From NCBI GenBank assembly GCA_944376655.1, contig CALWDJ010000025.1:1-33459 (forward strand): a stretch of DNA of 33,459 bases. The letters are read 5' to 3'. A program made the translations under genes and the position numbers. Shown here piece by piece: positions 1,422 to 31,930 of this stretch (positions are counted from its first letter, which is position 1; every line of letters starts with the position of its first letter). The notes under the pieces are model-generated. The model ran no database searches, was not told where the DNA came from, and worked only from the letters and a program-made list of their open reading frames with translations. Origin of the DNA: an uncultured Clostridia bacterium. Lineage in GTDB: Bacteria > Bacillota > Clostridia > Oscillospirales > Acutalibacteraceae.

Positions 1422-1427
1422 GGGTGA
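1422..1427 (+). promoter_or_regulatory. ribosome binding site that decides a TTG start
   Basis: GGGTGA lies five bases before the TTG at 1433. The same arrangement (GGGGTGA, then five bases, then TTG) occurs before the gene at 6105. An upstream in-frame GTG at 1424 overlaps this site and is therefore less likely to be the start. Confidence 0.5.
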
Positions 1428-1432
1428 TTGTT

Positions 1433-4261: not shown

Positions 4262-4272
4262 GAGGTCAGAAA

Positions 4273-5193: not shown

Positions 5194-5195
5194 TA

Positions 5196-6080: not shown

Positions 6081-6092
6081 TTTCTTTTGTTT

Positions 6093-6099
6093 GGGGTGA
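6093..6099 (+). promoter_or_regulatory. ribosome binding site that decides a TTG start
   Basis: GGGGTGA lies five bases before TTG at 6105, which opens with Lys-Lys-Arg-Lys and a hydrophobic signal segment. The longer reading from a TTG at 6087 would place the ribosome site inside the coding region and is disfavoured. Confidence 0.55.
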
Positions 6100-6104
6100 A
6101 AATT

Positions 6105-8174: not shown

Positions 8175-8193
8175 CAGGGAAAGGTAAAGACTG

Positions 8194-12608: not shown

Positions 12609-15600
12609 ATGAAGCGAATCCTATCGTCAGCCGTCGCGGTATGCACGGTATTGAGCATACTTTTCGGTTTGATAGCGAGTGTCTATGTTGCTTCGGCGGA
12701 AACTTTCTGGAAGGGTTTTCTGTTTTCATTTGAGGAGAGCAATCCGTTTGACAGCATAAGCAATGTTTACAGCGGCGCGGAGCACTGGACGTCGGACGGC
12801 ATAGGCACCGTTTCGGGCGCTGAGGCTCTTAACGGAAGCTCATCACTCAAGATATCCGCTGTTTCGGAGAATAATTCCGAGACGCGTCTTAAAATAATAG
12901 ACGCTCCCGGAATGCCGGAATTCAGCAAAACCGATTTTTCCGAGGCTTCGGGCATAGCGCTCAGAATTAAAATAGCCGACGGCGCTGACAGCTCAAGGCA
13001 TAAATTCACGATCGCGCTGCGTCAGAGCGGAGTGGCAAAAGCTACATGGCTCGGAAAGCAGTCAGTTGCGTATGACATAGACGGCAGCCGCGTCGAAATA
13101 ACCACCGAAAATCTCGGACTTTATCTGCCTGCCGGCTTCGACGGCTTCGTCTTCCTCCCTTTCAAAGAGTCAAGGAGCGAACAGGTCACGGTGCCCGGTT
13201 CGTATGACAGCTATCAGACATATCCTGACAGTATGGTAGACCTTTCTGAGGATTACACGTTTCAGATGTATCTCGGTGACAGCTCTTGGAACGGCTCTGA
13301 TGTATATATCGATGATATATGCGTATATTCGGGTGAGGAAACAGCCGATCATTATGAGCTGCTCAGAAGTCTCGGTTACGGTATTACGGCGGTGGCGCAG
13401 CCGTCGCGGTATTCTCTGCCGCTGAGCTTTGAGGAGCAGTACAATCCATTTATCAACGTAAATAACATTTACGATAATGCGGAGCATATAAGCGGCGAGG
13501 GCATTGCGCTTGTAAGCGGCAGCGAAGCGCTCAACGGCATTTTCTCTCTCAAGGTAGGTCCGATAAGAGAGGGCAACCAGAGAACAATGCTGACCAACGC
13601 CGCAATGAAGGCAGAGCCGGATTTCAGCAAGACAGATTTCAGCAAGATAACCGGTATAATGCTGCGTATAAAAATCAGCGGATATACCGGAACCGCTTCG
13701 CACCGTTTTACCGCCGCTTTAAGACAGGACGGCGTAGCAAAAGCCACATGGCTCGGCTACGGAGCCGCGGCGTATGACCTTGGCGGAAACAAAATAGAAA
13801 TCACTGCCGAGAACCTCGGGCTAAGCCTGCCGGCAGGCTTTGACGGTTTTGTGTTTATGCCGCTTGAATACGCGCGCAGCGAGCAGGTGACCGAGCCCGG
13901 TTATTACGATAATTATCAGACTCATCCCGAAAGTATGGTTGATCTTTCAAAGGATTACAGCTTCCAGATATATCTCAATGACGAAACCTATAACGGAACA
14001 ACGGTATATATAGACGATATAAACTATTACAGCGGCCATACTCACGGGGAGCATCTTGAGCTTATAAAATCGCTAGGATACGCCACAACCGCGGTAGTAC
14101 AGCCGTCGAGATATTCCTTCCCGCTTCCGTTTGACGACGGGCTTATGCCGTTCACCTCGGTGAGCAACGTGTACGATAACGCAGAGCATGTAAGCAGTGA
14201 GGGCGTTGCGCTTGTAAGCGGTTCGGAAGCGCTTAACGGAACGGCGTCGGTGAAGGTCGGACCGATAAGAGACGGCAATCAGCGCACATTCCTTACCAAT
14301 GTTCCGATGACCGCCGTAGAGGGCTTCAGCAAAACCGATTTCAGTAATGTCACGGGAATCGCCCTGCGTATAAAGCTGACCGGCGACAGCGGCGGAACGC
14401 ATAAATTCACTGTTGCCTTAAGGCAGGACGGGGTGCAGAAACCGACATGGCTCGGCTACGGCGCAGCGGCGTATGACCTGAGCGGAGAAATAATAGAAAT
14501 TAAAACCGAGCAGCTGGCGCTCAACCTGCCGGCAGGCTTTGACGGGTTTGTATTTCTTCCTCTTGAGAGCGCGCGCAGCGAGCAGGTTACCGAACCGGGA
14601 TATTACGATACATACCAGTCGTATCCGGAAAATTTGGTAGACCTTTCAAAAGAATACAGCATGCAGATATATTTCCATGACGAGACATGGAACGGCATGA
14701 CGGTTTATATGGATGATTTCGGAATATACAGCGGAACGGACGCCGCCTCGCATTACGAATATCTTAAAGAGCTCGGTTATATCATAACAGCCGTCGCCCA
14801 GCCCGAAAGATATTCACTGCCGCTGAGCTTTGACGAGGAATACAATCCGTTCATTACCGTGACCGATGTGTATGACAACGCCGAGCATGTGGCAGACGGC
14901 GGAATAGGGCTTGTCGGCGGAACCGAAATGCTTAACGGCGTATATTCCCTTAAGGTGGGACCGATAAGGGAAGGAAATCAGCGCACACTGATAACAAACG
15001 CGAAAATGGCGGCTGAGCCGGATTTCAGCAAAACCGATTTCAGTAAGATAACCGGTATAATGCTGCGCGTCAAAATCGCGGGAGACAGCTCAGGCTCAAA
15101 GCACCGCTTTACCATCGCACTCAGGCAGGACGGGGTGCAGAAGCCGACATGGCTCGGATATTCGGCAGTGGCGTATAACCTCAAGGGCGAGAAGGTCGAT
15201 ATCACGACCGAGCAGCTTGCCGCGTCGCTTCCGGCGGGATTTGACGGATTTATCTTCCTGTCTTTTGAAAACGCACGCAGCGAGCAGGTTACCGTGCAGG
15301 GATATTACGATACATATCAGACCTATCCCGAAAATATGGTTGACCTTTCAAAAGACTACAATATGCAGCTTTATTTCCATGATGAAACATGGAACGGTTG
15401 CACCGTATATATCGACGATATAAACTTTTATTCAGGCGATACGCACGAAGAGCACATAAAGCTCATCAATACGCTCGGGTACAGCACTTCGGCTGTAATT
15501 CAGCCCGAACGCTATTCCTTCCCGTTTGTCTTTGATGACGGGCTTATGCCGTTTACATCTGTGAATGATGTCTATGACAATGCCTCACACTGGAAAAACG

Positions 15601-17786
15601 ACGGCGTAAAAACTGTGACCGGCTCCTCGGCGCTTGTCGGCAGCACTTCCTTAATGGTGGGGAAGATAGTCGCCGGCAATCAGCGCACAGAGCTTAACGT
15701 GGTCGATATGGCGCCGATATCCGGTTTCAGCAAATCGGATTTCAGCAAGGTTAGCGGACTTATGCTGCGCGTTAAAATCAGCGGAGGCGACAGCTCGGTT
15801 ACCAAAAATATCGCCTTCGCGATAAATCAGGAGGGGCTTGAAAAGCGTACATGGCTCGGCAACAATGCCGCGGCATACGACCTTGAGGGTAATCCGCTCC
15901 AGTTAAGAAACGCTAATTTGGAGGTTGTGCTTCCGGGCGATTTTGACGGATATCTTTTCCTTCCGTTTGAAGACGCGCGCAGCGAGGTTGTTACGGTACC
16001 GGGGTATTATGACAGCTATCAGACGTATCCGGAAAATATGGCGGACTTCTCAAAGGATTATACGCTCCAGATTATGTTTAACGGAGACGTATGGGGCGAT
16101 ACAACGGTTTACATCGATGATATGCGCATTTACAGCGGAAATAAGCATATCAATATCCTTAAAGAGCTGTATGACGGAATAATCACCGTACAGCAGCCGG
16201 ATTGTTACACCCTTCCGTTTGACTTCGAGGGCGGAATGACGCCGTTCAAGGAGCCGCTCGACGGCGGACTTTATGTTCAGGATAAGGGTGAATACGGTAC
16301 CGGCGGAACGCTGACCTATGAAATGTCGGATATACAGAACCGCAAAGCCATGAAAATAAAATTCGCCGATGATCTTACCGACGCATACAGCGTCTATACA
16401 TCAAAGGCGCTTGTCCAGGGCGGGGAGAATATGAAGGGCTTTGTGCTGAGGGTAAAGACCGACTGCAAGGAATCGGCTACTCTTTCGATAATGACCGACT
16501 GGCTTACCGACGATTCTACCGTTTTCGGCTCGGGAGCGGTGCTTTATGACACGCGCGGAAATATGGTTGACCAGCCGAGAGAAAAGCATAACTGGCTCGG
16601 CGTAGGACTTCCGGCTGAATTTGACGGGTTTATATTCATACCGTACGACCAGGGCTTTATCGAGAAAAACAGCCTTAAATGCTCCGCGGTTGACGGCTGG
16701 AAATTCAGCAACAGGCAGCGGCTTATGCAGCTTATATTCCACGGCGAGGAGCAGTGGCAGGGCACGACCTTTACAGTGGATTATTTCGGAGAGTATTCCG
16801 ATACGAATTATGTCGGGCTTATCGAATCGCTCGGATATGAAATATCTGCCGGCACACAGCTTGTATGGAGAGAAATCTACGGCAGCGCCGCGGATAAATT
16901 CTTCTATAACATCAGATTAAACGAAGTGTTTGATGCGGCTGCTCTTGATGAGCTTACTAACTGGACAGTGCTTAACGGGGAAGACCCGGGCGGCAAAAGC
17001 TCTTTTAGCGCGTCAAATGTAAGGCTCGGTAATAACTCGCTTATCATAGGCTCGTCAAAGAACGGAGACGCATATACCACCGGCGGGGTACGTTCGGCGG
17101 CGAAGTATTCCTACGGATACTACGAGGCGGTTATAACGCTGCCTGAAATATCAGGAATAGAGAGCCTTTTCAGACTTGTCACAGACGGCGATTACAGAAT
17201 GGGCGGAACCGCGTTCGAGATAGATATAGCCTATCTGAACGAACTTTATGAGCTTCAGACCGGATACCGATATATGGAAAACCATACTCCGCTTGAGCAG
17301 GGCGGAAAGGTGATTGACGGCGGCGCGGCGGCGGAAATAAACGATGATTTCGCCGGTGTCTCGCATACCTACGGACTGCTTTATACATACGATTACCTGC
17401 GTTTTTATGTTGACGGAGAGCTTGTGCGTGTGGTCGAAAATGATTTCGCGCGCGGAGGCACCTATATCGAGCTTGCGCAGACTGTTACCGGAGAAGTAGA
17501 AGGAGACCTTAACTCGCAAAGCTCCGAAATGCATATCAGCAATGTTTCGTACTGGGAAATAGATATGGACGAAATGAGCAGATATGACGAACTGAGCGAT
17601 GAGGAAAAGCTGATGCTCGGAACAGGCGGCGGCAGCGAAACCGGCAGCAAGATACAGCCGAAGACGGCTGCAAGCGGTGTGTTTAAAGTGCTTTGCGTAA
17701 CTCTTGGGATTGCTGATATTCTGTGTCTCGCAGCACTTGCCGTTACGGTTATAGTAGGTAAAAAGAAAGGAAGGATCGCCGTATGA
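12609..17786 (+). CDS. giant membrane-anchored surface protein: six beta-rich modules plus a GH16-like domain lacking its acid/base Glu
   Basis: Surface protein of 1725 residues. A signal peptide (1 to about 30, ending ASA) is followed by six tandem modules of about 233 residues starting near 37, 270, 504, 736, 971 and 1200. Shared marks are a P-L-x-F-E/D opening, SEALNG, GIMLRIKI, TWLG, A-Y-D-L-x-G, LPAGFDGF-hydrophobic-F-L-P, and a closing YIDDI..YSG. The linker reads SLGYxxTAVxQPxRYS. A GH16/concanavalin-like domain follows (about 1436-1657; YTTGGVRSAAKYSYGYYEA). Its catalytic motif is EIDIAY (E1537-Y1542) where active GH16 enzymes have EIDIxE or EIDIE, so the acid/base Glu seems absent. 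A C-terminal helix (about 1690-1715) and KKKGR anchor it in the membrane. It overlaps the next gene by four bases. The role is inferred to be glycan capture; the modules have no name I can assign. Confidence 0.8.
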   Translation: MKRILSSAVAVCTVLSILFGLIASVYVASAETFWKGFLFSFEESNPFDSISNVYSGAEHWTSDGIGTVSGAEALNGSSSLKISAVSENNSETRLKIIDAPGMPEFSKTDFSEASGIALRIKIADGADSSRHKFTIALRQSGVAKATWLGKQSVAYDIDGSRVEITTENLGLYLPAGFDGFVFLPFKESRSEQVTVPGSYDSYQTYPDSMVDLSEDYTFQMYLGDSSWNGSDVYIDDICVYSGEETADHYELLRSLGYGITAVAQPSRYSLPLSFEEQYNPFINVNNIYDNAEHISGEGIALVSGSEALNGIFSLKVGPIREGNQRTMLTNAAMKAEPDFSKTDFSKITGIMLRIKISGYTGTASHRFTAALRQDGVAKATWLGYGAAAYDLGGNKIEITAENLGLSLPAGFDGFVFMPLEYARSEQVTEPGYYDNYQTHPESMVDLSKDYSFQIYLNDETYNGTTVYIDDINYYSGHTHGEHLELIKSLGYATTAVVQPSRYSFPLPFDDGLMPFTSVSNVYDNAEHVSSEGVALVSGSEALNGTASVKVGPIRDGNQRTFLTNVPMTAVEGFSKTDFSNVTGIALRIKLTGDSGGTHKFTVALRQDGVQKPTWLGYGAAAYDLSGEIIEIKTEQLALNLPAGFDGFVFLPLESARSEQVTEPGYYDTYQSYPENLVDLSKEYSMQIYFHDETWNGMTVYMDDFGIYSGTDAASHYEYLKELGYIITAVAQPERYSLPLSFDEEYNPFITVTDVYDNAEHVADGGIGLVGGTEMLNGVYSLKVGPIREGNQRTLITNAKMAAEPDFSKTDFSKITGIMLRVKIAGDSSGSKHRFTIALRQDGVQKPTWLGYSAVAYNLKGEKVDITTEQLAASLPAGFDGFIFLSFENARSEQVTVQGYYDTYQTYPENMVDLSKDYNMQLYFHDETWNGCTVYIDDINFYSGDTHEEHIKLINTLGYSTSAVIQPERYSFPFVFDDGLMPFTSVNDVYDNASHWKNDGVKTVTGSSALVGSTSLMVGKIVAGNQRTELNVVDMAPISGFSKSDFSKVSGLMLRVKISGGDSSVTKNIAFAINQEGLEKRTWLGNNAAAYDLEGNPLQLRNANLEVVLPGDFDGYLFLPFEDARSEVVTVPGYYDSYQTYPENMADFSKDYTLQIMFNGDVWGDTTVYIDDMRIYSGNKHINILKELYDGIITVQQPDCYTLPFDFEGGMTPFKEPLDGGLYVQDKGEYGTGGTLTYEMSDIQNRKAMKIKFADDLTDAYSVYTSKALVQGGENMKGFVLRVKTDCKESATLSIMTDWLTDDSTVFGSGAVLYDTRGNMVDQPREKHNWLGVGLPAEFDGFIFIPYDQGFIEKNSLKCSAVDGWKFSNRQRLMQLIFHGEEQWQGTTFTVDYFGEYSDTNYVGLIESLGYEISAGTQLVWREIYGSAADKFFYNIRLNEVFDAAALDELTNWTVLNGEDPGGKSSFSASNVRLGNNSLIIGSSKNGDAYTTGGVRSAAKYSYGYYEAVITLPEISGIESLFRLVTDGDYRMGGTAFEIDIAYLNELYELQTGYRYMENHTPLEQGGKVIDGGAAAEINDDFAGVSHTYGLLYTYDYLRFYVDGELVRVVENDFARGGTYIELAQTVTGEVEGDLNSQSSEMHISNVSYWEIDMDEMSRYDELSDEEKLMLGTGGGSETGSKIQPKTAASGVFKVLCVTLGIADILCLAALAVTVIVGKKKGRIAV
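12717..16860 (+). repeat. six tandem ~700-bp protein-module repeats
   Basis: Module starts are near 12717, 13416, 14118, 14816, 15520 and 16207, a period of about 690-704 bp. Modules 1 to 5 are clearly alike in protein and in stretches of DNA; modules 2 and 4 resemble each other, as do 3 and 5 at their openings (LSFEE/LSFDE-YNPF against DDGLMPFTSV). That alternation suggests duplication of a two-module unit. Module 6 is the most diverged. Confidence 0.85.
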
Positions 17787-19099
17787 AAAAACTGTCTTTA
17801 AAAATTATTTCGGGTATTGCGGCTGTTTTAACGGCGCTTTACGCCTGCTTCGTCGCGCCTGTCGGCGTTTCGGCGGAGAAATATTCGGCGTCAACCGATT
17901 TTATGGCGGGAAAATACGGCATATTCCTGCATTATCTTTCGTCTATGCAGCTCGGCGGCAGCGCTCCCTTAAGCAGCTGGAACGAGCTTGTAAATTCCTT
18001 TGATACCGACGCTTTCGCGAAAAGCGCTGACGAGGTAGGCGCGTCATGGGTCTGCATAACGCTCACACAGTCTGACGGACTTTACTGCATTCCCATGCCG
18101 GAGCTTGAAAATATGATAGGCGGCTCAAAGCTCTCGACCGACCGCGATCTGGTGCTTGACCTTTATAATTCACTTGAGCCTTACGGTATAAAGCTGATGC
18201 TTTACTGGATACCGGGAGCTACAACCGGCAACACCGCAGTCGCCAAAGCGCTCGGAGCCGAGCGCCGCGTTTCCGGAGAGCTGGCGGGCGGTCAGAGCAA
18301 CTCCGATTATATGCTCAACTGGACGGTTGTGAAAAATCAGTCATCGCTTATGAGCGCCGTATCCGAACGCTACGGTGATAAAATATCCGGCTGGTGGATC
18401 GATGGCTGCTATGATTCCACCGGATTTAACGAAAGGGTTGCCGAGCAGGAAGCGGCGGCTCTCAAAAGCGGAAACAAAAACGCGGTTGTGGCTTTTAACA
18501 ACGGAACAAAGGCTGATGACTGCCGCTTTGAGGTTGAGGATTACTCGGCAGGCGAAATATGCCACCCCAATTCCATTGCGGAAACCGATATTTTTGATTA
18601 TTCGGCGGAGGGCAGATGGACAGAGCTCGGTTACCAGAAGCATTTTCTCACCTTCCTGGGCAGCAACTGGGGAACAGGCGGAACGATATACGATACCGAG
18701 GAGCTTGTAAAGCATTGCTATGAGAATATTCTCAGCAAGGGAGCGGCGCTCACACTTGATGTGCGTGTTTCAGGCGACGGAACTATTGAGGCAGACCAGT
18801 ACGCGCAGCTTGTCCGGCTTAATGAATATGTATCATCAATGCCGGAAATAACGCTTGATAATATTGTGGATAACAGAAGCGGGAGCGCCGGCGCAGAAAG
18901 CGATACGAGTGAAAGCTCCGAGAATACGGAGCCGTCGCAGACCGAAAATATAACCGATGTAAGCGTGAAAAACGAGAGTCCGGGAAACGGCAGCGTACTG
19001 CGCACTGTTATAATAATTGCCGAAGCGGCTGTTCTCGCGGCAGGCATGGTTTTGATAACGGTTATGCTTATAAAAAGGAAAAGAGCTGAAAGAAAATGA
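17783..19099 (+). CDS. membrane-anchored GH29-like glycosidase (fucosidase superfamily)
   Basis: Protein of 438 residues with a signal peptide (1 to about 31), a GH29-like (beta/alpha)8 domain (about 35-350), a Ser/Thr/Glu-rich linker (about 365-402), and a C-terminal membrane helix (about 405-430) ending KRKRAERK. GH29 landmarks are KYGIFLHY (44-51, His50 like the first fucose-binding His), FDTDAFAKSADEVGA (73-87), DRDLVLDLY, and GWWIDGCYD (203-211), where Asp207 fits the catalytic nucleophile position. The HHDG segment of true alpha-L-fucosidases is replaced by QSDG (96-99), so the substrate may not be fucose. The ATG overlaps the TGA of the 12609 gene, and its own stop overlaps the next start in the same way, so the three genes are translationally coupled. 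Paralogues are at 23254 and 25708. Confidence 0.7.
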   Translation: MKKLSLKIISGIAAVLTALYACFVAPVGVSAEKYSASTDFMAGKYGIFLHYLSSMQLGGSAPLSSWNELVNSFDTDAFAKSADEVGASWVCITLTQSDGLYCIPMPELENMIGGSKLSTDRDLVLDLYNSLEPYGIKLMLYWIPGATTGNTAVAKALGAERRVSGELAGGQSNSDYMLNWTVVKNQSSLMSAVSERYGDKISGWWIDGCYDSTGFNERVAEQEAAALKSGNKNAVVAFNNGTKADDCRFEVEDYSAGEICHPNSIAETDIFDYSAEGRWTELGYQKHFLTFLGSNWGTGGTIYDTEELVKHCYENILSKGAALTLDVRVSGDGTIEADQYAQLVRLNEYVSSMPEITLDNIVDNRSGSAGAESDTSESSENTEPSQTENITDVSVKNESPGNGSVLRTVIIIAEAAVLAAGMVLITVMLIKRKRAERK

Positions 19100-19839
19100 T
19101 TAAAATAGGTGTGGCGGATTACGGGCTCAACTGCTGGGACGGTGCGCTGTACGATTACAGCGACCGGCTGGCGATGCTTAAAAGTCTCGGCTTTTCGGGA
19201 ATAGAGCGTCTTGAGGCACGCACAGAAGCCGAGGTAGTCGAAACAGCCGCCGCAGCAAGGCGCCTCGGCATGGGCTTTGCCACCTGCCGGGGCGGCACAG
19301 CCGCGGAAACAATAAAATGGTCTTCCGCACTCGGATATGATTATATATGGGCTGAATCAAAAAGCGGAGAGCTGCCGGTTTTCTGTGAGCAGACCCGAAT
19401 TCAGGCGGAGGCTGCCGCTGAATACGGACTGAAGGTTTCTGTGCATAATCATCTCGGCCTTGCGGTTGAGAGCTCGGAGCAGTTAGAGGAATTCCTCAGG
19501 CAGTGCCCGCAGTGCGGATTGATACTCGATGTAGGACATCTGCATGCCGCAGGAGGCGACCCTCTTTATATCATAGATAAATATGCAGACAGGATTTCAG
19601 CGGTGCATATCAAGGATTATGTGATAAAAGACCCGAACGGACAGTACTGGTGGGACCGGATAAGATTCTGTGAGCTTTCCGCCGGAGAAATGGGCGGGCT
19701 TAATACGGAAATTCTCAAAGCACTTAAAAACGTGGGCTACTGCGGCTGGATATTTGTCGAACACGATACGCATCTGAGAAATCCCGCGGAGGATCTCGCG
19801 GTCAGCATGAAATTCATTGAAAAGGCGGGTGTGCTCTGA
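19096..19839 (+). CDS. sugar isomerase/epimerase-like TIM barrel protein (AP_endonuc_2 family)
   Basis: Cytoplasmic protein of 247 residues of the xylose-isomerase-like TIM barrel family. Putative metal and substrate residues are in VSVHNHLG (114-121; His117, His119), ILDVGHLHAAGGDPL (143-157; Asp145, His148), AVHIKDY (169-175; His171) and WIFVEHD (218-224; Glu222). No signal peptide is present. The ATG overlaps the preceding stop by four bases, and a Gfo/Idh/MocA dehydrogenase follows within five bases. Such pairs act on inositols and in breakdown of C-glycosides or 3-keto-glycosides, so the protein may be an isomerase, epimerase or keto-sugar lyase. Length is slightly below the usual 270-290. 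The exact reaction is not determinable. Confidence 0.82.
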   Translation: MIKIGVADYGLNCWDGALYDYSDRLAMLKSLGFSGIERLEARTEAEVVETAAAARRLGMGFATCRGGTAAETIKWSSALGYDYIWAESKSGELPVFCEQTRIQAEAAAEYGLKVSVHNHLGLAVESSEQLEEFLRQCPQCGLILDVGHLHAAGGDPLYIIDKYADRISAVHIKDYVIKDPNGQYWWDRIRFCELSAGEMGGLNTEILKALKNVGYCGWIFVEHDTHLRNPAEDLAVSMKFIEKAGVL

Positions 19840-19843
19840 TATA

Positions 19844-20926: not shown

Positions 20927-23261
20927 GCCATATATCCTGAAATACAGCGTTCCGGCTCCTTTCGGAAACGAGGGGGCGGAGCGCTTCAGTACCGAAAATC
21001 CTGAAAATGACGGCTGGGAAAAATGGTCGCTGCCTGTCGGAAACGGCTTCTTCGGCGCCAGTATTTTCGGCAGAACTGAAACCGAGCGCATCCAGCTTAC
21101 CGAAAACAGCTTCGCCAATCCTATGAACACGGAAAACTGCGGAGCGGGTCTTAATAATTTAGCGGAAATATATATTGATTTCTTTCATAACAATCCGGAA
21201 AAATATGGGCGCGGACTTGACATAGAAAAGGCCGAGGCGTATGTTGAATATGATTTTGCGGGAGTAAAGTACAGGCGGGAATATTTCGCGTCCTATCCTG
21301 ACAGGGTAATGATTGTAAAGCTGACCGCCGGCGCAGAAAACGCTCTTTCGTTCAGATTAAGGGCGGAGGTCCCGTTTGTGCGGGATTATTGCGTAAAGCC
21401 GAATGACGGAATGGGGAAAACCGGCGGGGTTTCTGTTTGCGATAATTTTATACTGCTTACGACACATCTTGAAATGTACGATGTATACGGCGCGGTGTGC
21501 GTGCTCGCCGAAAGCAACGGCAGAATAACCGCCGACAGCGGAGCGCTGAGTATTTCAGACGCGGACAGCGCCGTGATTTACATATCCTGCGCCACAAATT
21601 ACAGGCTGTGTGCAGAGATTTTCACCGAATCCGACCCAAAGAAAAAGCTCAGAAATAAAAGCTATCCCACGGAACGTGTGATAAGCACGGTAAAAAAGGC
21701 GGCGGAAAAGGGCGCCGTAAAAATAAAAGAAGACCATTTAAAGGACTATAAAGGACTTTTCGGCACAGCTTCACTTGACCTTGGAGGCGAAGTGCCGGAA
21801 TGTACTACCGACAGGCTGCTTGAAGATTTCAGAAACGGCGGAGACGGCAGATATTTGCAGGAGCTGCTGTTTCAGTACGGGCGGTATTTGCTTATAGCAT
21901 CTTCGAGAAAGGGCGGACTTCCGGCAAACCTGCAGGGTATTTGGAATTGTTACGCGGACGCTCCGTGGACAGCCGGATACTGGCACAACATAAATATACA
22001 GATGAATTACTGGTTCTGCTTCGGGTGCGGACTTGCAAGGCTTTTCAAGCCTTATGCCGATTATTTTTCGGCGTACAGAAAAGCGGCGGAAAACGGTGCG
22101 GACAGCTATGTAAGGGAGCTTTTCCCCGAAAACTATGAGGGAGCCGGAAATAACGGCTGGTCGATAGCGACCGGAGGCTGGCCGTATGAAATACAGCCGA
22201 TAAATGCCGATGAGTATAATCATTCGGGTCCCGGGACCGGCGCTATGACCGCTATGCTTTTCTGGGATTATTACGATTTCACAGCTGACAAGGAGCTGCT
22301 TGCCCGTATATGTTATCCGGCTCTTTACGGCGCGTCGCTCTTTCTCTCGAAAATAATGGTCTGTGAAAACGGCGCGTGGCTTATTAAGTATTCCGCGTCG
22401 CCCGAGCAGTGGCAGGACGGCAAATGCTATCGTACAAAGGGCTGCGCCTTTGACCAGCAGACCTGCCGTGAGGTTTTCTGCGCCACGGTAAAAGCGGCGG
22501 AGATACTGGGGCTTGACAATGACAGTCTGATAAAAACGCTGCGTGAGAGAAAAGACAGGCTCGAGCCGTTTTTGTACGGTGAGAGCGGGCAGGTAAAGGA
22601 ATTCCGGGAGGAAAAGGAGTACGGCAGCATAGGAGAATATCACCACAGACATATTTCACAGCTTGTCGGATTTTACCCTGGCGTATTCTACGATAAGGAG
22701 GACAGCCGGCTTAGAGAAGCCGTGAAAAAAACGCTTGATCTTCGCGGTGACCGCAGCACGGGCTGGGCGACGGCGCACAGGATATGTGCCTGGGCGCGCA
22801 CCGGTGACAGAAAGCGAACCTCCGAGCTGGCAAAGACATTTATAAACAACTGTATTTTGCCGAATCTGTGGGATACGCATCCGCCTTTCCAGATTGACGG
22901 AAATTTCGGTTACTGCGCCGGAGTTTACGAAATGCTGATACAGTCGCACGGGGACAGTACCGAGCTGCTGCCGGTGATTCCGGAGGAATGGAGCGAGGGA
23001 GCTTTCTGCGGATTATACGCGAGAGGCGGCTTCAGCTTCAGTGTGAGCTGGAAAAAATGCAGGCCTTATAAAATTTCTGTTTATTCCAAAGCGGGGAAAA
23101 TGCTGAGGCTCAAAACAGGAAATTTGAAAATAGCCGGAATAAATACGGCGGACGGCGGACGAAAACCGCAATACAGTATAAAAAACGGCATACTTTCACT
23201 GGAAACAGTTGCCGGAGAAGAATATATTTTTATTTTGAAAGGGGAGGATAACGGTGTCTGA
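20916..23261 (+). CDS. GH95 glycosidase (alpha-L-fucosidase / alpha-L-galactosidase family), cytoplasmic
   Basis: Inverting glycosidase of 781 residues, the normal length for GH95. The N-terminal beta domain shows WSLPVGNGFFGASIFG (37-52) and ERIQLTENSF, both GH95 hallmarks. The (alpha/alpha)6 domain has LPANLQGIWN and HNINIQMNYW (357-366), with Asn358 and Asn360 at the expected catalytic asparagine pair. It also has SASPE (493-497, Glu497 a candidate general acid) and HPPFQIDGNFG (655-665, Asp661 matching the Asp that activates the asparagine). No signal peptide is present, so it should work on imported oligosaccharides, removing terminal L-fucose or L-galactose. The start ATG overlaps the dehydrogenase gene by 11 bases, and the stop overlaps the next gene by eight. 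Fucose versus galactose preference cannot be read with confidence. Confidence 0.92.
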   Translation: MKSKPYILKYSVPAPFGNEGAERFSTENPENDGWEKWSLPVGNGFFGASIFGRTETERIQLTENSFANPMNTENCGAGLNNLAEIYIDFFHNNPEKYGRGLDIEKAEAYVEYDFAGVKYRREYFASYPDRVMIVKLTAGAENALSFRLRAEVPFVRDYCVKPNDGMGKTGGVSVCDNFILLTTHLEMYDVYGAVCVLAESNGRITADSGALSISDADSAVIYISCATNYRLCAEIFTESDPKKKLRNKSYPTERVISTVKKAAEKGAVKIKEDHLKDYKGLFGTASLDLGGEVPECTTDRLLEDFRNGGDGRYLQELLFQYGRYLLIASSRKGGLPANLQGIWNCYADAPWTAGYWHNINIQMNYWFCFGCGLARLFKPYADYFSAYRKAAENGADSYVRELFPENYEGAGNNGWSIATGGWPYEIQPINADEYNHSGPGTGAMTAMLFWDYYDFTADKELLARICYPALYGASLFLSKIMVCENGAWLIKYSASPEQWQDGKCYRTKGCAFDQQTCREVFCATVKAAEILGLDNDSLIKTLRERKDRLEPFLYGESGQVKEFREEKEYGSIGEYHHRHISQLVGFYPGVFYDKEDSRLREAVKKTLDLRGDRSTGWATAHRICAWARTGDRKRTSELAKTFINNCILPNLWDTHPPFQIDGNFGYCAGVYEMLIQSHGDSTELLPVIPEEWSEGAFCGLYARGGFSFSVSWKKCRPYKISVYSKAGKMLRLKTGNLKIAGINTADGGRKPQYSIKNGILSLETVAGEEYIFILKGEDNGV
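23241..23247 (+). promoter_or_regulatory. ribosome binding site for the GTG start at 23254
   Basis: GGGGAGG lies six bases before GTG 23254 and inside the end of the GH95 gene. It is one of the strongest ribosome sites in the window and supports a GTG start with an eight-base gene overlap. Confidence 0.7.
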
Positions 23262-24204
23262 AGCGGCGGACAGATTTCTTGCAAAAAAATTCGGCGTCTT
23301 TTCACATTATTTGAACGGAATACAGAACGGGGGAGACAGCCGCCGAAACCCGAGCGGAAAGCGGACAACGTGGAACGGGCTTGTGAATGAGCTTGACACC
23401 GATAAGCTGGCTTATTCGCTCAATAAAATGGGAGCCGGATATTTTTTCATAACACTTATGCAGGGTACGGCGCAGCTTTGCGCCCCCAATTCGGCGTTTG
23501 ACCGGATATGCGGCACAAAGCCGGGTGAGGCGTGTTCAACAAGGGATCTGCCGGCTGACCTGTATGACTCGCTTTCAAAATACGGTATCGACCTGTTTCT
23601 TTACTACACCGGAGACGGTCCTCACCTGACTCCGGTCATAAACGAGCTTATGGGTATGCCCGAGCCGCGCATACCCGTAACCGAAAAATTTCTCAATAAC
23701 TGGTCTGAGGTTTTAAGAGAGTATTCCGAGAGGTACGGAAATAAGGTCAAGGGCTGGTGGATAGACGGCTGCTATGATTGGCTCGGGTATAACGAAAAGA
23801 CGCTTGCGTATTATGACCGCGCAATAAAATCAGGAAACCCGGACGCGCTTATCGCTTATAACTACGCAGGAGCGGCGGAGGGTCCGCTCATTCGTTCTCC
23901 GTATCCGGAGGAATATGTTGCGGGCGAGCGCAACGATTTTATCTGTATACCGCAGGGACGGTATATAGACGGCGCGCAGGCACACGTTTTCGCGCCACTC
24001 GGCGTTCTGCCGGAAGGATACGGTGGCGGAGCGTGGGCGTTTCCGGGCACGAAGAGGGACCGTGAATATATGCTTGATTATATAAAAAAGGTCAATGCCG
24101 CCGGCGCTACCGTTACGGTTGATATAGTTCTTTACAGGGACGGCGGCTTTGCGCCGGAGCAGGAGGAGCTGCTGACATATGTGGGAACACACCTGCAAAA
24201 ATAA
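23254..24204 (+). CDS. cytoplasmic GH29-like glycosidase
   Basis: Protein of 316 residues, essentially the bare GH29-like barrel with no signal peptide, linker or anchor. It shares with the gene at 17783 the segments KKFGVFSHYL (11-20, His18), LDTDKLAYSLNKMGA, STRDLPADLYDSL and KGWWIDGCYDW (166-176, Asp171 the candidate nucleophile). The HHDG fucose-binding segment of classical GH29 is replaced by MQGTA (69-73), even further from the family norm than in the two secreted paralogues. The protein lacks the C-terminal beta-sandwich common in GH29. The GTG start has a strong ribosome site, and the gene follows GH95 with an overlap, so the two probably act on the same imported oligosaccharide. Activity is inferred from fold only. 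Confidence 0.68.
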   Translation: MSEAADRFLAKKFGVFSHYLNGIQNGGDSRRNPSGKRTTWNGLVNELDTDKLAYSLNKMGAGYFFITLMQGTAQLCAPNSAFDRICGTKPGEACSTRDLPADLYDSLSKYGIDLFLYYTGDGPHLTPVINELMGMPEPRIPVTEKFLNNWSEVLREYSERYGNKVKGWWIDGCYDWLGYNEKTLAYYDRAIKSGNPDALIAYNYAGAAEGPLIRSPYPEEYVAGERNDFICIPQGRYIDGAQAHVFAPLGVLPEGYGGGAWAFPGTKRDREYMLDYIKKVNAAGATVTVDIVLYRDGGFAPEQEELLTYVGTHLQK

Positions 24205-24215
24205 ATGTTTGGAAT

Positions 24216-24231
24216 CGGATAAAATTATCCG
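24216..24231. promoter_or_regulatory. 16-bp inverted repeat upstream of solute-binding protein gene
   Basis: CGGATA-AAAT-TATCCG is a perfect six-base stem with a four-base loop, in the 55-bp gap before the solute-binding lipoprotein. It could be an mRNA stem-loop that gives the binding-protein message extra stability, or a regulator half-site pair. A related hairpin occurs at 33156-33173. Confidence 0.35.
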
Positions 24232-24259
24232 TTATTAAATTCTGAAAAGGAGTATTGCA

Positions 24260-25687
24260 ATGAAAAAAATATTTAGAAAAACCGTATGCGGTGTTCTGTG
24301 CTTGGCGACCGCGCTGGCTCTGGGCGCCTGTTCAGGCAAGGAAGCCTCAAGTGATAAGCCTGAAAGCGGTAATGACGGGGAAGCTGCCGCGCGTGTGAGT
24401 CAGGAGTTTCTCGATTCTCTTAACGGAATGAGCATAACAATAGCTTATCCGGATAAAATGAGAAATCCCGGGCAGAGCCCGATTGATGACGAGTGGCAGA
24501 TGACCGTCAACCGTGTTTCAAAGGAACTCGGCGTTACAATCAAAGAGGAATTTTTCACAAATAAGGAAAACGGAGCCTCGTTTATAACTGAAAGCCTTTC
24601 AGGCAATAACAGCGGAAATATCGAGGTTGTCTGGTTTACAAACGCGTTGCTCGGAGCGCAGAAAAACGCTTGGGCGGATCTTGACGCCGCCGCAAAGGAA
24701 GCGGGGATAACCCTTGATACTGACTGGGTGTTTGCGCCGACCACAAAAGCCTGCAATATCGACAATGTGCAGTACGGAGTACAGTATAAAACGCAGTTTG
24801 TTGACTTTGCGGCAATGTATTACAACGTAAATATGGTAACGGTGGACAATAAGCTGGAGGATCCTTATGAATTATATTTGAAAAATGAATGGACATTTGA
24901 TAAGTTTGAAGAGTACTGCAAAAAGCTCACTAAAACCGATGCGTCAGGAAATATAACTGTTTACGGCTGCCAGCTTCCGGCTACGGCGTGGGTAACTAAT
25001 TTTATTGACGCTAACGGCGGCTCGGTAGGCAGACTTGACGGGGACGGAAGATGGAAGCAGACTCTTTCGGACAGCAAGACCCTGAACGCATATAACTATG
25101 TATACAAATGGATGTATTCAGATAAATGCGTATATGTTCCGCAGGGAACATGGGATACCGCTTATCAGAATCTTTGGGACGGAAAGACCGCGATGGTAAT
25201 GGGAGCCTCTTCAGCCGCTACCGATTCCTACTTAAAGCAAAAGGACGAAGGCGGAATGGGAGTAGTACCGCTTCCAAAGGGACCTGACGCAGAGGATTAT
25301 TCGCTCAATTCCAGCGGCGGATTTGCATATGTAATACCTGTCGCCTATCAGAAGGACGCGGCGAAATATCTTTACGTCATAGATGAAATATCACGTTCAT
25401 GGTATGAAAACTTTGAGTCGGTTTACAGCGCCCAGCATTCGGCGGTTTTCAAGGATCAGAAATATTACGATTTCTTCTACAAACTTATGAACAACGATCT
25501 TCTTACCGATATTTCGGGGGCTGCACTCTCTCTCGTTTCGGACTCTTCGGGATACAGCTCTTCTATGCTTACGGTTGAGATAACCAACGGGGCTTCTCCG
25601 GCAACCGCCATAAGCCGTTTCGCGTCTGCGATGCAGAATGAAAATGACGATGTTATGGGAGATACACGGTATACCGGCTTTAACTGA
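24260..25687 (+). CDS. ABC sugar solute-binding lipoprotein
   Basis: Extracellular solute-binding protein of 475 residues, family 1 type. The signal peptide ends in the lipobox LGAC with Cys24, followed by a flexible acidic/Ser-rich linker. Domain marks are MSITIAYPDK (about 54-63), EVVWFTNALLG, AMYYNVNMV, NEWTFDKFEEYCKKLTK (about 210-226), DGKTAMVMGAS and GGMGVVPLPKGP (about 330-341). The ribosome site AAGGAG is at 24247-24252 before ATG 24260. It sits away from both permease pairs, behind a 55-bp gap with an inverted repeat and just before the dockerin-bearing GH29-like gene, so it may have its own expression level. It could feed the permeases at 10729/11630. The ligand is unknown. Confidence 0.88.
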   Translation: MKKIFRKTVCGVLCLATALALGACSGKEASSDKPESGNDGEAAARVSQEFLDSLNGMSITIAYPDKMRNPGQSPIDDEWQMTVNRVSKELGVTIKEEFFTNKENGASFITESLSGNNSGNIEVVWFTNALLGAQKNAWADLDAAAKEAGITLDTDWVFAPTTKACNIDNVQYGVQYKTQFVDFAAMYYNVNMVTVDNKLEDPYELYLKNEWTFDKFEEYCKKLTKTDASGNITVYGCQLPATAWVTNFIDANGGSVGRLDGDGRWKQTLSDSKTLNAYNYVYKWMYSDKCVYVPQGTWDTAYQNLWDGKTAMVMGASSAATDSYLKQKDEGGMGVVPLPKGPDAEDYSLNSSGGFAYVIPVAYQKDAAKYLYVIDEISRSWYENFESVYSAQHSAVFKDQKYYDFFYKLMNNDLLTDISGAALSLVSDSSGYSSSMLTVEITNGASPATAISRFASAMQNENDDVMGDTRYTGFN

Positions 25688-25707
25688 TAAAAACAGGAGG
25701 AGAAAAA

Positions 25708-28700
25708 ATGTCAAAGATAATCAGCAGACAATTTTTAAAAGCAGTTTCACTTTTAATTTCAGCAATGCTTGCATTCTCGGCTTTTGTTTTTGCACCGGTC
25801 ACTTCCTCCGCAGCCACATACAATAATAAAACAGATTTTATGAACGGCAGATACGGTATTTTTCTCCATTATCTCTCAAACGGCAATATGACCGATGAGC
25901 AATGGGAGGAAAAGGTAAAAAGCTTTGATTCGGAAGTTTTTGCATCGGCAGCGGAAACCGCCGGAGCGTCATGGGTCACGGTGACTCTGACTCAGGCTGA
26001 CGGCAGATACTGCATACCGATAGATACGATATTTGCCGAAAGCGATATACCCGGTTTCGGCTCGGGTACCGTAAAGGCAAAGGGTGTTGCCGCGGAAGAC
26101 GACCTTGTGGCGCGTCTTTATACGGCGCTCAGTGCCAAGGGAATAAAGCTCATGCTTTACTGGATACCGAGCGCGCCCTCAGGCAACGCGGAGCTTGCGG
26201 CAGAGATGGGCGCGACCGAAATGGTGTCCGGCAACTGGAGTATAAACGAAACGGTTTATACCAATATGAGCGCTGCTATGCGTACCGTTTCCGAATACTA
26301 CGGCGATAAAATATCCGGCTGGTGGATAGACGGCTGCTATGACTCGGTAGACTTCACCGAGACGGTCGCCGACGGATACAAGGCAGCGCTTACCGCGGGC
26401 AATGCCGATGCTGTTGTGGCTTTCAACAACGGCGCCAAGGCTGATGACTGCCGCTTTGAGTGCGAGGACTACACGGCGGGTGAAATTTGTCACCCTGATA
26501 CGCTCGATATTACGGATATTTACGATTATTCCGCGGATTCGAGATGGTCTCCGCTCGCTTACCAAAAGCATTTCCTTACCTTCCTCGGCGACAACTGGGG
26601 ATTCCCCGGAACGCACTATGACACCGACGCTCTTGTAAAGCACTGCTATGACAATATACTGAGCAAGGGCGCGGCTATATCATTTGATGTTGCCTGCTCG
26701 TCATCGGGAACGATAGACGCGGCGCAGCTGGCACAGCTTGAGGCATTAAAGGAATATTCACAGAATGCGCTCTTTGATATGCCGCTCGGGTTTGAAAGCG
26801 GACTTAATAATATTTTCGGTCTTGAAAAAATAGAGAATAATACCGTATACAAATACGCTACCGAGACAGCCGGAGGGGAAAACGCGCTAAACGGCGATTA
26901 TTCGCTTCTCATTGTCCCCGACGGCGTGCAGCGCACATCTGCGGTATCGTCACGCAATATAAAAGGGATAAGCGGATTTTCATGGGATAAGCTCAAAAAC
27001 GGCACAAGCGAGGTTGACGGAATAATGCTCCGTATGAAAATTACGGGTTCCGACGCTTCAAAGCCTCTCGCTTTCAGCCTTTTCGCGACCCAGAGCGGAA
27101 AATCGTATACATGGCTCGGAAGGAATGCCGTTCTTTACGATACCGACGGCAATCTTCTGACAGCGCCGAGCTCCAGCTTTTCGGTAACGCTTCCGGCCGA
27201 ATTTGACGGATTTATTTTCCTGCCCTTTACGCAGGCTAAAACCGACGGCGCGGGCTGGCCGTCATTCTCAGCCGATACCGATACTTCCACATTTGTGGAT
27301 TTCTCTCAGAATTTTAATTTGAGCATAAATTTCAAATCGGTTTACGACGGCGGTGAAAACGGCTGGATAGGAACTGAAGTGTTGCTTGACGATATAGCCG
27401 TTTATTCGGGCGACCACTATGATATGATCCGTTCGCTCGGATATGATCTGCTCGCCGCCACGCAGCCTGAATATTACAGCTTCCCGCTTGACTTTGAGGG
27501 TCTTGAGCTGCCGGCGGGCTGGAATTCGGCAACGGCTACATATATAAAGGTTACCGACGGAAACAAATCGTGGCCGAGTGAAAATTTCAGCGGTTATATG
27601 TCTCTGGTTTCCGGCAGCGAGGCGTTAAACGGCAAATATTCGCTTAAAATTTCTGTTCCAGAGCTTAATATCAGCTGGACCGATGAACAGAACAATCAGA
27701 CACTCGGAAATATCACCACCGGTTATATGCCGGTTGACGGTATAGAGGAGCTTTCATTTGAAAAACTGGCAGACGCCGCGAAAAACAGTAAAAGCGATTA
27801 TGCGTATATCCGTATCAGAATGAAGCTCCCCGAGTCGGAGGACTCAAGCCCCTTCAACTTCGCGCTGCGTATAAAGCAGGACGGAATAACAGACCAGATT
27901 TATCTTGCTCACGGTGAATTCGCGTATGACCTTAACGGAAACGAGGTCACATCAGTCAGAAGCAATACGGAGCAGAATAATATGAGCCTGCCTTCCGGCT
28001 TTGACGGATATCTGTACATTCCGTTTACAGGAATGACAAATACAGAAAAATATATAGGTTATTCCTCCGCGACTGAAGAAGAGATGCCTGATATGTCCGA
28101 ACCGTTCTCGGTATGGTTTTTCTTCGCAAACGATACATGGTGCGGCGCCGATGCTTATATAGACGACATGAGCATAATAATGAACAACAGTGCGCTGCCC
28201 TTTACCTTTGACAATGAGATTCAGCGTCCTTTTACCTTGCTTACCAACTCCGGAGCGTCAGCGTCAGGACTGTCGTATGTGACAGGCAGCGAGTCGCTCA
28301 ACGGGAACGCTTCGTTTAAAATCGATTTCCCGGATAATTCGCAGAAAATAGAAACAAATCATGCCGCGGTTTCAGGAAACGCCGCTTTCTCATGGGATTC
28401 GCTCAAGGCCGGAACAGAAACCGTGAGCGGAATAATGATGAGAATAAAAATAACCGGAGGAACTGCGGAAGAAAGTCTGCCGCTGAGCCTGATTCTCTAT
28501 CAGAGCGGAAAATCAAAGACATGGCTCGGAAGGTCAGACGCGGTAATTTATGATCTTGACGGCAATAAAACAGAACTTTCGGACAATAAGTTCTGTCTGT
28601 ATCTGCCGGGAAACTTTGATGGCTATCTTTTCCTGCCCTTCAGCTCGGCAAGACTTGATGACGCCACATGGACCGGATACGGACCGGATACGGATATGTC

Positions 28701-29733
28701 CGCTTTTGTCGATATTTCGGCTGATTATGAGCTTTCATTTATGTTCGGAGGAGTATACGACAATCATGTTTCATGGGCGGGAACAGAAGCGGTGATAGAC
28801 GATATAAGCTATTACGGCGGCTCGGCCGACGAGGAGCATTATGCCGCGATACGCGCGCTCGGATATGAAATGCTGCGAGCGGAACAGCCGGAGCGCTACA
28901 CCGTTCCGCTTGATTTTGAGAATTATGAATTGCCGTTCGCCGAATCGGTTTCTTACTATTCCTATAACGGCGGATATCCTACAATTAACGGGTCCAACCG
29001 TTTGGTTGGCACAGGATCCGCTCTTTCAGGCAAGGTTTCGCTTGCTCTTACCGTTCCGGGCGGTGGAGAAGGAAGCTATGTGAGAGCGGAGACCTCATGG
29101 TCGGAATTTGCCGGTATCAGCGGGCTCGATAAGGCAACCCTTATGCTCGCAAACTCGGATTACGCGTCATTAAGGCTTCGTATCAGAATACCCGACGGTT
29201 CTCCTGAGGAAATGTTTACATTTAACATTGCCTTTGTACAGGACACCGCCACGGCAAACAGCGCGGAGACAGTAGGCTATCTTTCGGCAGGCGCCTGCGG
29301 GTACAACGCCGACGGCAGCTATAATTCTTCGGTCACATATTTTGACAGGTATATAAAGGCCCCCGCCGGTTTTGACGGATATATTGAGATACCCCTGCGC
29401 AGTATGTTTGCCGTACTGCCTGACAGATATCTTGATTACGGCGACAGTGAAAATATGCTGCCCGACCTTTCGGAGAATTTCAGTATCCGTCTGAATTTCT
29501 ATGACAATACCGAGGGCAGAACTATTCTTATTGACGATATAAGCGTTAAGAAAGACGGCACATTCGGCGATCTGAACGGCGACGGAGCCGTTAATGCGCA
29601 GGATAGTGCGCTTCTTAAAAAGGCGCTTTTGGGCGCTGCGTCTTATGACGGTTCGATGGACCTTAACGGCGACGGATATGTCGATGTAAAGGACCTGATA
29701 AGGCTTAATAAACTTTTAAGTATGATTTCATAA
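25708..29733 (+). CDS. secreted GH29-like protein with four beta-rich modules and a type I dockerin
   Basis: Secreted modular protein of 1341 residues. A signal peptide (1 to about 35) is followed by a GH29-like barrel (about 38-350) with RYGIFLHYL (His54), TQADG (95-99, replacing HHDG) and GWWIDGCYD (204-212, Asp208 the candidate nucleophile). Four beta-rich modules start near 357, 592, 828 and 1066, each with the P-L-x-F-E/D opening and a (A/S/N)-x-FDG-(F/Y) core, clearly related to those of the gene at 12609. The C-terminus (about 1288-1341) is a dockerin with two calcium loops, DLNGDGAVNAQD and DLNGDGYVDVKD, each followed by an LxxLxKxLL-type helix. AGGAGG at 25695-25700 fixes the ATG. 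The protein should dock onto a cohesin scaffold at or beyond the cell surface; no cohesin is in the window. Confidence 0.85.
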   Translation: MSKIISRQFLKAVSLLISAMLAFSAFVFAPVTSSAATYNNKTDFMNGRYGIFLHYLSNGNMTDEQWEEKVKSFDSEVFASAAETAGASWVTVTLTQADGRYCIPIDTIFAESDIPGFGSGTVKAKGVAAEDDLVARLYTALSAKGIKLMLYWIPSAPSGNAELAAEMGATEMVSGNWSINETVYTNMSAAMRTVSEYYGDKISGWWIDGCYDSVDFTETVADGYKAALTAGNADAVVAFNNGAKADDCRFECEDYTAGEICHPDTLDITDIYDYSADSRWSPLAYQKHFLTFLGDNWGFPGTHYDTDALVKHCYDNILSKGAAISFDVACSSSGTIDAAQLAQLEALKEYSQNALFDMPLGFESGLNNIFGLEKIENNTVYKYATETAGGENALNGDYSLLIVPDGVQRTSAVSSRNIKGISGFSWDKLKNGTSEVDGIMLRMKITGSDASKPLAFSLFATQSGKSYTWLGRNAVLYDTDGNLLTAPSSSFSVTLPAEFDGFIFLPFTQAKTDGAGWPSFSADTDTSTFVDFSQNFNLSINFKSVYDGGENGWIGTEVLLDDIAVYSGDHYDMIRSLGYDLLAATQPEYYSFPLDFEGLELPAGWNSATATYIKVTDGNKSWPSENFSGYMSLVSGSEALNGKYSLKISVPELNISWTDEQNNQTLGNITTGYMPVDGIEELSFEKLADAAKNSKSDYAYIRIRMKLPESEDSSPFNFALRIKQDGITDQIYLAHGEFAYDLNGNEVTSVRSNTEQNNMSLPSGFDGYLYIPFTGMTNTEKYIGYSSATEEEMPDMSEPFSVWFFFANDTWCGADAYIDDMSIIMNNSALPFTFDNEIQRPFTLLTNSGASASGLSYVTGSESLNGNASFKIDFPDNSQKIETNHAAVSGNAAFSWDSLKAGTETVSGIMMRIKITGGTAEESLPLSLILYQSGKSKTWLGRSDAVIYDLDGNKTELSDNKFCLYLPGNFDGYLFLPFSSARLDDATWTGYGPDTDMSAFVDISADYELSFMFGGVYDNHVSWAGTEAVIDDISYYGGSADEEHYAAIRALGYEMLRAEQPERYTVPLDFENYELPFAESVSYYSYNGGYPTINGSNRLVGTGSALSGKVSLALTVPGGGEGSYVRAETSWSEFAGISGLDKATLMLANSDYASLRLRIRIPDGSPEEMFTFNIAFVQDTATANSAETVGYLSAGACGYNADGSYNSSVTYFDRYIKAPAGFDGYIEIPLRSMFAVLPDRYLDYGDSENMLPDLSENFSIRLNFYDNTEGRTILIDDISVKKDGTFGDLNGDGAVNAQDSALLKKALLGAASYDGSMDLNGDGYVDVKDLIRLNKLLSMIS
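26777..29560 (+). repeat. four tandem ~700-bp protein-module repeats
   Basis: Modules start near 26777, 27481, 28191 and 28903 (period about 705-710 bp) and encode the same module as the repeats at 12717-16860. Modules 1 and 3 are the closest pair (QSGKSYTWLGR and QSGKSKTWLGR), as are 2 and 4, again suggesting duplication of a two-module unit. Confidence 0.8.
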
Positions 29734-30801: not shown

Positions 30802-30815
30802 AGCAGGGTGAAAAA

Positions 30816-31925: not shown

Positions 31926-31930
31926 AAGAA

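What the first reader, a model, noticed from the sequence alone, without database searches (positions are those of the whole stretch)
12717..29560. A ~233-residue beta-rich module present in ten copies across two surface proteins
Six copies in the protein at 12609 and four in the protein at 25708 share P-L-x-F-E/D openings, S-E-A-L-N-G, T-W-L-G, L-P-A-G-F-D-G-F/Y, and a closing Y-I-D-D-I..Y-S-G, joined by an SLGY..xAxxQPxxY linker. The pattern suits a beta-sandwich carbohydrate-binding module, but I cannot match it to a named CBM family. The strong conservation of TWLG and FDG suggests binding or fold-critical sites.
Basis: partly seen in the sequence, partly recalled or inferred. Interest (0 to 1): 0.72.

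Follow-up and report, generated by a model that had tools for sequence, protein, structure and literature searches.

The report
Unnamed sugar-binding modules, ten copies
A gut Clostridia bacterium carries ten copies of an unnamed, probably sugar-binding protein module in two secreted proteins, one apparently held in its membrane and one able to plug into an enzyme complex, inside a gene cluster that looks built to take apart a fucose-containing glycan.

Summary
The repeat is real. All ten copies (215-238 aa) were found again in leave-one-out profile searches (E 3e-19 to 6.5e-96). They match no module family of Pfam or NCBIfam and no PDB sequence. AlphaFold2 gives a confident beta-sandwich (pLDDT 93.6). 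Its best solved neighbour is CBM11, and CBMs make up 20 of the 50 rows shown, but TM-scores are low (at most 0.41 by query length): CBM-like, no close relative. F5, E/D6, R84, K86, FDG, W192 and D200-D201 are near-invariant in 40 copies; the W of TWLG is not.

Four Clostridia genomes share the pair in a syntenic locus. One protein has six modules, a GH16-fold domain lacking the catalytic acid/base Glu in all four, and a membrane helix; the other a GH29-like domain, four modules and a dockerin. Fucosidase-type enzymes, ABC permeases and esterases surround them. One genome adds a protein of four modules plus dockerin without a recognised enzyme.

Best reading: a narrowly distributed CBM-like family holding a fucose-containing glycan at the membrane and on a cellulosome-like complex. 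Binding and ligand are untested.

The parts
12609..17786 (+). Carrier 1, 1725 aa: signal peptide, six modules, GH16-fold domain, C-terminal membrane helix with basic tail
12717..13415 (+). module A1
   Evidence: profile search
13416..14117 (+). module A2
14118..14816 (+). module A3
14817..15518 (+). module A4 (the one modelled)
15519..16211 (+). module A5
16212..16856 (+). module A6, divergent, one group across four genomes
16857..17594 (+). GH16-fold domain; EIDIA at about 17217-17231 in place of EIDxE, acid/base Glu missing
   Evidence: Pfam PF00722 E 6.2e-11; PDB alignment; four genomes; fold (low-confidence model)
25708..29733 (+). Carrier 2, 1341 aa: signal peptide, GH29-like domain, four modules, dockerin
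25810..26778 (+). GH29-like catalytic domain with GWWIDG motif
   Evidence: PDB 9pnj alpha-L-fucosidase E 5.9e-9; 55.5% identical to the GH29-like protein at 17783; no Pfam match of its own
26779..27480 (+). module B1
27481..28194 (+). module B2, no linker after it
28195..28902 (+). module B3
28903..29553 (+). module B4, divergent, one group across four genomes
29566..29718 (+). type I dockerin
   Evidence: PF00404 E 3e-9
1424..12586 (+). Neighbours upstream: solute-binding protein (1424), permeases (4273, 5196, 10729, 11630), NHL/Yip1 protein (6087), DUF5696 protein (8194)
   Evidence: synteny
17783..25687 (+). Neighbours between the carriers: membrane-anchored GH29-like (17783), isomerase-like barrel (19096), oxidoreductase (19817), GH95 (20916), GH29-like without signal peptide (23254), probable solute-binding lipoprotein (24260, read from sequence only)
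   Evidence: synteny
30079..33127 (+). Three esterase/hydrolase-type genes; the middle one glucuronyl-esterase-like

Best explanation
The repeat is an unnamed family of CBM-like beta-sandwich modules, about 230 aa with a C-terminal helix and linker, that hold a glycan. In this bacterium they are used in two places. The six-module protein is anchored in the membrane and ends in a GH16-fold domain that has lost its catalytic acid/base, so it most likely captures and presents polymer rather than cutting it. The four-module protein carries a GH29-like domain, predicted active, and a dockerin, so it can plug into a cohesin-bearing complex. Several modules in a row give avidity for a repeating glycan and keep the fucosidase-like enzymes and ABC importers of the locus supplied. 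The glycan most likely contains L-fucose and perhaps esterified uronic acid. Shown by computation: repeats, predicted fold, architecture, synteny, loss of the GH16 Glu. Inferred: glycan binding, avidity, cell location, ligand.
For: Ten copies by leave-one-out profiles. Confident beta-sandwich (pLDDT 93.6, pTM 0.90) whose first PDB hits are CBM11 (E 3.1e-4) and whose 50 rows shown include 20 of CBMs or CBM-bearing enzymes. E/D6 in 38 and D200 in 39 of 40 copies stand near the chain ends, as do the calcium carboxylates Glu122 and Asp351 of the BT2081 jelly roll (passages of PMC2954218). Same two architectures in four of four genomes in a syntenic locus with GH29-like, GH95, esterase and ABC transport genes. 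Acid/base Glu of GH16 absent in four of four. 15 dockerin and 4 cohesin matches in the genome. A four-module dockerin protein without a recognised enzyme in the sheep genome, its modules matching B1-B4 in order.
Against: No binding data. TM-scores are low (query-normalised at most 0.41 in the 50 rows shown) with rmsd of 5-16 A; 16 of those rows are binding domains of clostridial neurotoxins and 11 an exo-agarase, so the match is to a broad jelly-roll class, and some neighbours are not CBMs. W112 is not conserved. Some near-invariant residues (R84, FDG) recur in the distant superfamily, which fits a fold role as well as binding. The GH16-fold model is weak (pLDDT 64.7). No cohesin-dockerin pairing was tested. 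Two of the three window esterase genes were not seen in the sheep and UBA stretches fetched, so the uronic-ester part of the ligand guess is weak.
Confidence: 0.65

Rival explanations
1. The modules are structural spacers: a stiff rod that lifts the GH16-fold domain off the membrane and spaces the GH29-like domain from the dockerin, without binding sugar.
For: The linker helix (210-219) is confidently placed on the module and the LGY..QPxxY linker recurs, as for a rigid rod; module number is constant at six and four in four genomes; R84 and FDG, the most conserved residues, could be fold-critical.
Against: In the sheep genome four modules stand with a dockerin and no recognised catalytic domain to space. 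A6, B2 and B4 have kept their own sequence types across genomes, more than a plain spacer needs. The fold is that of binding modules.
Confidence: 0.15
2. The modules are members of a CBM family already in CAZy that has neither a Pfam model nor a PDB entry, so the tools here could not name it.
For: CAZy and UniRef could not be searched. CBM75 and CBM76 were described from Ruminococcus flavefaciens enzymes (one table passage of PMC10992016, plus its listing), a related kind of host.
Against: No CBM family of Pfam for any of 40 copies, no PDB sequence at E up to 10. Strong matches are limited to four genomes among those examined.
Confidence: 0.12
3. The modules bind proteins or other bacteria (adhesion or assembly), the glycan locus being incidental.
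For: Carriers are secreted and one looks membrane-anchored; jelly-roll folds also bind proteins (one EphA2 row).
Against: Both carriers have glycosidase-type domains and keep their place among glycan genes in four genomes; a distant relative pairs an Alpha_L_fucos domain with three weakly matching modules (L032).
Confidence: 0.06

Closest known systems
CBM11 of Clostridium thermocellum and the CBM4/CBM22/CBM27/CBM28/CBM30 jelly-roll class
   Same: Beta-sandwich fold class, Foldseek E from 3.1e-4; acidic residues near both chain ends, as in the structural calcium site that PMC2954218 (passages) describes for such jelly rolls
   Different: No sequence match to any CBM family; about 230 aa against 160-195 aa for most of the isolated CBM chains listed; TM query-normalised at most 0.41
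GH16 (domain of carrier 1)
   Same: Pfam match E 6.2e-11; fold match E 4.4e-11
   Different: Acid/base Glu replaced by Ala in four of four genomes, nucleophile Glu also lost in one
GH29 alpha-L-fucosidases (N-terminal domain of carrier 2)
   Same: PDB 9pnj alpha-L-fucosidase E 5.9e-9 with an Asp aligned at WWIDG; sister protein at 17783 passes Pfam PF01120
   Different: No Pfam match of its own at E up to 10; activity untested
Sas20, starch-binding protein of the Ruminococcus bromii amylosome
   Same: Works like: a non-enzymatic binding protein of a cohesin-dockerin type complex on a gut Clostridia cell surface (abstract and section list of PMC9112005)
   Different: Sas20 has two starch-binding domains of other folds; here four or six related modules and a different locus; homology between them was not tested
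Surface glycan-binding proteins of Bacteroides PULs (SusD/E/F type; recalled, no call)
   Same: Works like: binding proteins beside importers that hold polymer
   Different: Gram-positive ABC importers, no outer membrane; no relation tested

Membership tests
Carbohydrate-binding module (general class) | Discrete folded module attached to glycan-active proteins | tested here: met
   Ten copies, confident fold, GH29-like and GH16-fold partners
Carbohydrate-binding module (general class) | Demonstrated glycan binding | not testable with these tools
A named CBM family (any in Pfam, or with a solved structure) | Sequence match to the family | tested here: not met
   0 of 40 copies match a CBM family at E up to 10; 0 PDB sequences at E up to 10
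CBM11/CBM4-type jelly roll | Same fold at high structural similarity | tested here: inconclusive
   E 3.1e-4 but TM 0.41/0.52 and rmsd 8.6 A
A CAZy-only CBM family | Match in CAZy/dbCAN | not tested
   Library not available
GH16 enzyme (domain of carrier 1) | Nucleophile and acid/base Glu in ExDxE or ExDxxE | tested here: not met
   EIDIA, EIDIA, SIDIA, EVDIA in four genomes; the motif itself is recalled and seen in the aligned 3o5s
GH16 fold | Profile and fold match | tested here: met
GH29 (N-terminal domain of carrier 2) | Profile match and catalytic Asp | tested here: inconclusive
   No Pfam match; 9pnj E 5.9e-9, Asp aligned; GWWID[GS] in four of four genomes; that this Asp is the nucleophile is recalled
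Cellulosome component (carrier 2) | Dockerin on the protein and cohesins in the genome | tested here: met
   the pairing itself is untested

The most novel reading that the evidence does not exclude
A new CBM family for a fucose-containing, perhaps acidic glycan, used as a shared binding code: the same modules sit on a membrane-anchored, catalytically dead GH16 capture protein beside the ABC importers and on dockerin proteins, so that the membrane and the cellulosome-like complex hold the same polymer. This would be a Gram-positive counterpart of the surface glycan-binding proteins of Bacteroides PULs.
Probability: 0.35. Interest if true: 0.65.

Novelty: new member of a known kind. Interest (0 to 1): 0.45.

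Why it matters
If the modules bind, they are a new CBM family of gut Clostridia and a possible probe for a fucosylated polysaccharide. The locus also offers a testable case of a Gram-positive gut bacterium using one binding module both on its membrane and in its enzyme complex, with a dead hydrolase apparently kept as a binding domain. As a class of thing (CBM arrays on glycan-degrading proteins) it is ordinary; the interest rests on the missing family name and on the paired architecture.

Tried and rejected
No relative of module A4 on plasmids at E up to 1e-5, and none confirmed in viral contigs (68 pattern stretches, 0 confirmed). Two of the weak genome hits (L023, L024) are RmuC proteins and read as chance matches to a short P-x-x-DGFIYLP stretch; they remain inside the tally. 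Other weak hits (E 1e-3 to 2e-8) lie in part in long secreted repeat proteins with the same R-x-K, P-x-x-F-x-G-Y and D-[DN]-I/V-x-Y pattern; I read those as distant relatives, not as members of the close family. Not all of the weak hits were opened.

Recent expansion of the array was considered and rejected: fourfold-degenerate third positions of shared residues agree at only 26-49% between A1-A5 of the window, although A2-A5 group by lineage rather than position in the tree.

An active beta-glucanase was rejected on the missing acid/base Glu. The paper searches showed no title or abstract on this module; the library lacks most subscription journals, so I do not claim that it is absent from print. 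The pdb_via aligner was not available. No coordinates of the models were available to me, so conserved residues could not be mapped on the surface.
Full report
What is there. The window is a whole contig (G000:C25) of a 1.99 Mb genome, 95.9% complete, related to Clostridia MAGs. Two large secreted proteins carry the repeat. Carrier 1 (12609-17786, 1725 aa) has a signal peptide, six modules, a GH16-fold domain and a C-terminal hydrophobic helix with a basic tail. Carrier 2 (25708-29733, 1341 aa) has a signal peptide, a GH29-like domain, four modules and a type I dockerin. Ten of ten copies were found again when each was left out of the profile (E 3e-19 to 6.5e-96, database size set to 1000); none of 2000 shuffles was reported at E up to 100. 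The same genome also holds two (profile A1) or three (profile A2) weak matches on contig C24, in two open frames, one of them with a partial dockerin match.

No named family. Pfam gave no module match for the two proteins at E up to 10. For the 40 copies of the close family, nine families matched one or two copies each, best E 0.014, none of them a CBM family. NCBIfam gave nothing over a cut-off; its weak hits inside the array are a dehydratase-type and an elongation-factor model. The PDB sequence search with the ten-copy profile gave 0 hits at E up to 10. CAZy and UniRef were not available.

Fold. The model of A4, on a 40-sequence alignment, has mean pLDDT 93.6 and pTM 0.90: 16 strands of three or more residues and a C-terminal helix (210-219); only the last ten or so linker residues are uncertain. 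Foldseek against the PDB returned 1197 matches with E up to 10, of which 50 were shown. Five have E of 0.001 or less: two CBM11 chains (best E 3.1e-4, TM 0.41/0.52, rmsd 8.6 A), two chains of an exo-beta-agarase and one neurotoxin binding domain. By my count the 50 rows hold 20 CBMs or CBM-bearing enzymes (CBM11, CBM4, CBM27, CBM22, CBM30, CBM28 and others), 11 exo-agarase chains, 16 clostridial neurotoxin binding domains or chains (one titled only 'receptor binding domain') and 3 others. The fold class is therefore that of jelly-roll binding domains, with no close relative of known structure.

Conservation. In 40 copies from four genomes R84, F142, D143 and G144 are 40 of 40; F5, G124, P139 and D200 39; E/D6, K86 and Y120 38; Q104 and D201 36; W192 35. 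E/D6 and D200 lie near the two chain ends, as do Glu122 and Asp351, the conserved calcium carboxylates of the BT2081 jelly roll, a site shared with its structural neighbours (passages of PMC2954218). That the site exists here is inference. W112 of TWLG is W in 14 of 40, all 14 in the window and the BRZ genome. R84, K86, Q104, Y120 and W192 are candidates for a binding face; I had no coordinates to test that, and R84 and FDG-like residues recur in distant relatives, which also fits a fold role.

Distribution. A scan of the genome collection found six loci in three named genomes: BRZ_DH bin49, sheep-colon RGIG5552 and UBA5905. The samples overlap and are not exhaustive. The other matches are weak, and two are RmuC proteins. 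Within the four genomes the architecture is fixed: six modules plus GH16 fold plus hydrophobic tail, and GH29-like plus four modules plus dockerin. In the sheep genome a third protein (L052:8973-12167) has a signal-like start, four modules and a dockerin and no other Pfam domain; its modules 1-4 each match best the same-numbered module B1-B4 of that genome, so the block was copied as a unit.

Evolution of the array. In the tree A6, B4 and B2 each form one group across the four genomes (support 100/100, 99/95 and 86/78), whereas A2-A5 are forced into several groups, largely by genome or lineage; A5 of the window and BRZ joins the A2-A5 of UBA. A1, B1 and B3 are unresolved, ten of 37 inner branches are weak and several rows have long branches. 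Fourfold sites agree at only 26-49% between A1-A5 of the window. The reading, by inference, is old lineage-specific homogenisation or re-duplication of the inner copies while their number stayed at six.

The GH16-fold domain. Aligned to the Bacillus beta-glucanase 3o5s, EIDIE is EIDIA. The four genomes read EIDIA, EIDIA, SIDIA and EVDIA: the acid/base Glu is gone in four of four and the nucleophile Glu in one. The model is weak (pLDDT 64.7, four sequences) but matches GH16 structures from E 4.4e-11, among them one titled a pseudo beta-1,3-glucanase (4wzf). Much of the rest of the domain is conserved. So carrier 1 probably cuts nothing.

The locus. Around the carriers are a 945-aa solute-binding protein, four permeases, an NHL/Yip1 and a DUF5696 protein; three GH29-like proteins or domains (carrier 2; the protein at 17783, 55.5% identical to it, over Pfam's cut-off and with a C-terminal hydrophobic helix; the protein at 23254, just under the cut-off and without signal peptide); GH95, an isomerase-like barrel, an oxidoreductase and three esterase or hydrolase genes, one glucuronyl-esterase-like; and a probable lipoprotein at 24260 with no Pfam hit that I read as a second solute-binding protein. 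The core order is kept in the other three genomes; carrier 2 lies before the solute-binding protein in the sheep and UBA genomes and downstream in the window and BRZ. The first and third esterase genes were not seen in the sheep and UBA stretches fetched. HTH/AraC-type genes lie near carrier 2 in the sheep and UBA loci, the UBA one below Pfam's cut-off. The enzymes point to a fucose-containing glycan; which one is open (plant pectin, arabinogalactan or xyloglucan, host mucin or algal glycans).

How it most likely works. Carrier 1 holds polymer at the membrane near the importers through six sites plus a dead GH16 domain. Carrier 2, and in one genome the protein without a recognised enzyme, bring the same binding to a cohesin-bearing complex (15 dockerin matches, two of them partial, and 4 cohesin matches in the genome). 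A working precedent is Sas20 of Ruminococcus bromii, an amylosome protein with two starch-binding domains (abstract and section list of PMC9112005).

Noticed in passing
29797-30066: Remnant of a GH36 (melibiase-type) gene: it matches residues 599-688 of the 688-aa protein at L018:9604-11667 in the BRZ genome at 85.6% identity; the rest of the gene is missing from the window.
   Followed up: partly
17783-19099 and 25810-26778: The same GH29-like domain exists in a membrane-anchored and a dockerin-bearing form, 55.5% identical, parallel to the modules on membrane and dockerin carriers.
   Followed up: partly
24260-25687: 475-aa probable lipoprotein with no Pfam hit that reads like a solute-binding protein; conserved in the BRZ, sheep and UBA genomes at 96, 56 and 60% identity.
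   Followed up: partly
L021, L027, L030, L032, L034, L036 (genome G153): Very long secreted proteins built of several distantly related modules; the one in L032 also has an Alpha_L_fucos domain. No Pfam module model covers them over its cut-off in the four scanned or seen (L021, L032, L036 scanned; the rest not scanned).
   Followed up: partly
L052:8973-14758: In the sheep genome the four-module dockerin protein is followed by an 866-aa protein with a dockerin and no other Pfam match.
   Followed up: no
1424-4261 and 8194-10728: The solute-binding protein is unusually large (945 aa; Pfam match only at residues 569-845), and a DUF5696 protein lies between two permease pairs; both are kept in the four loci.
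   Followed up: no
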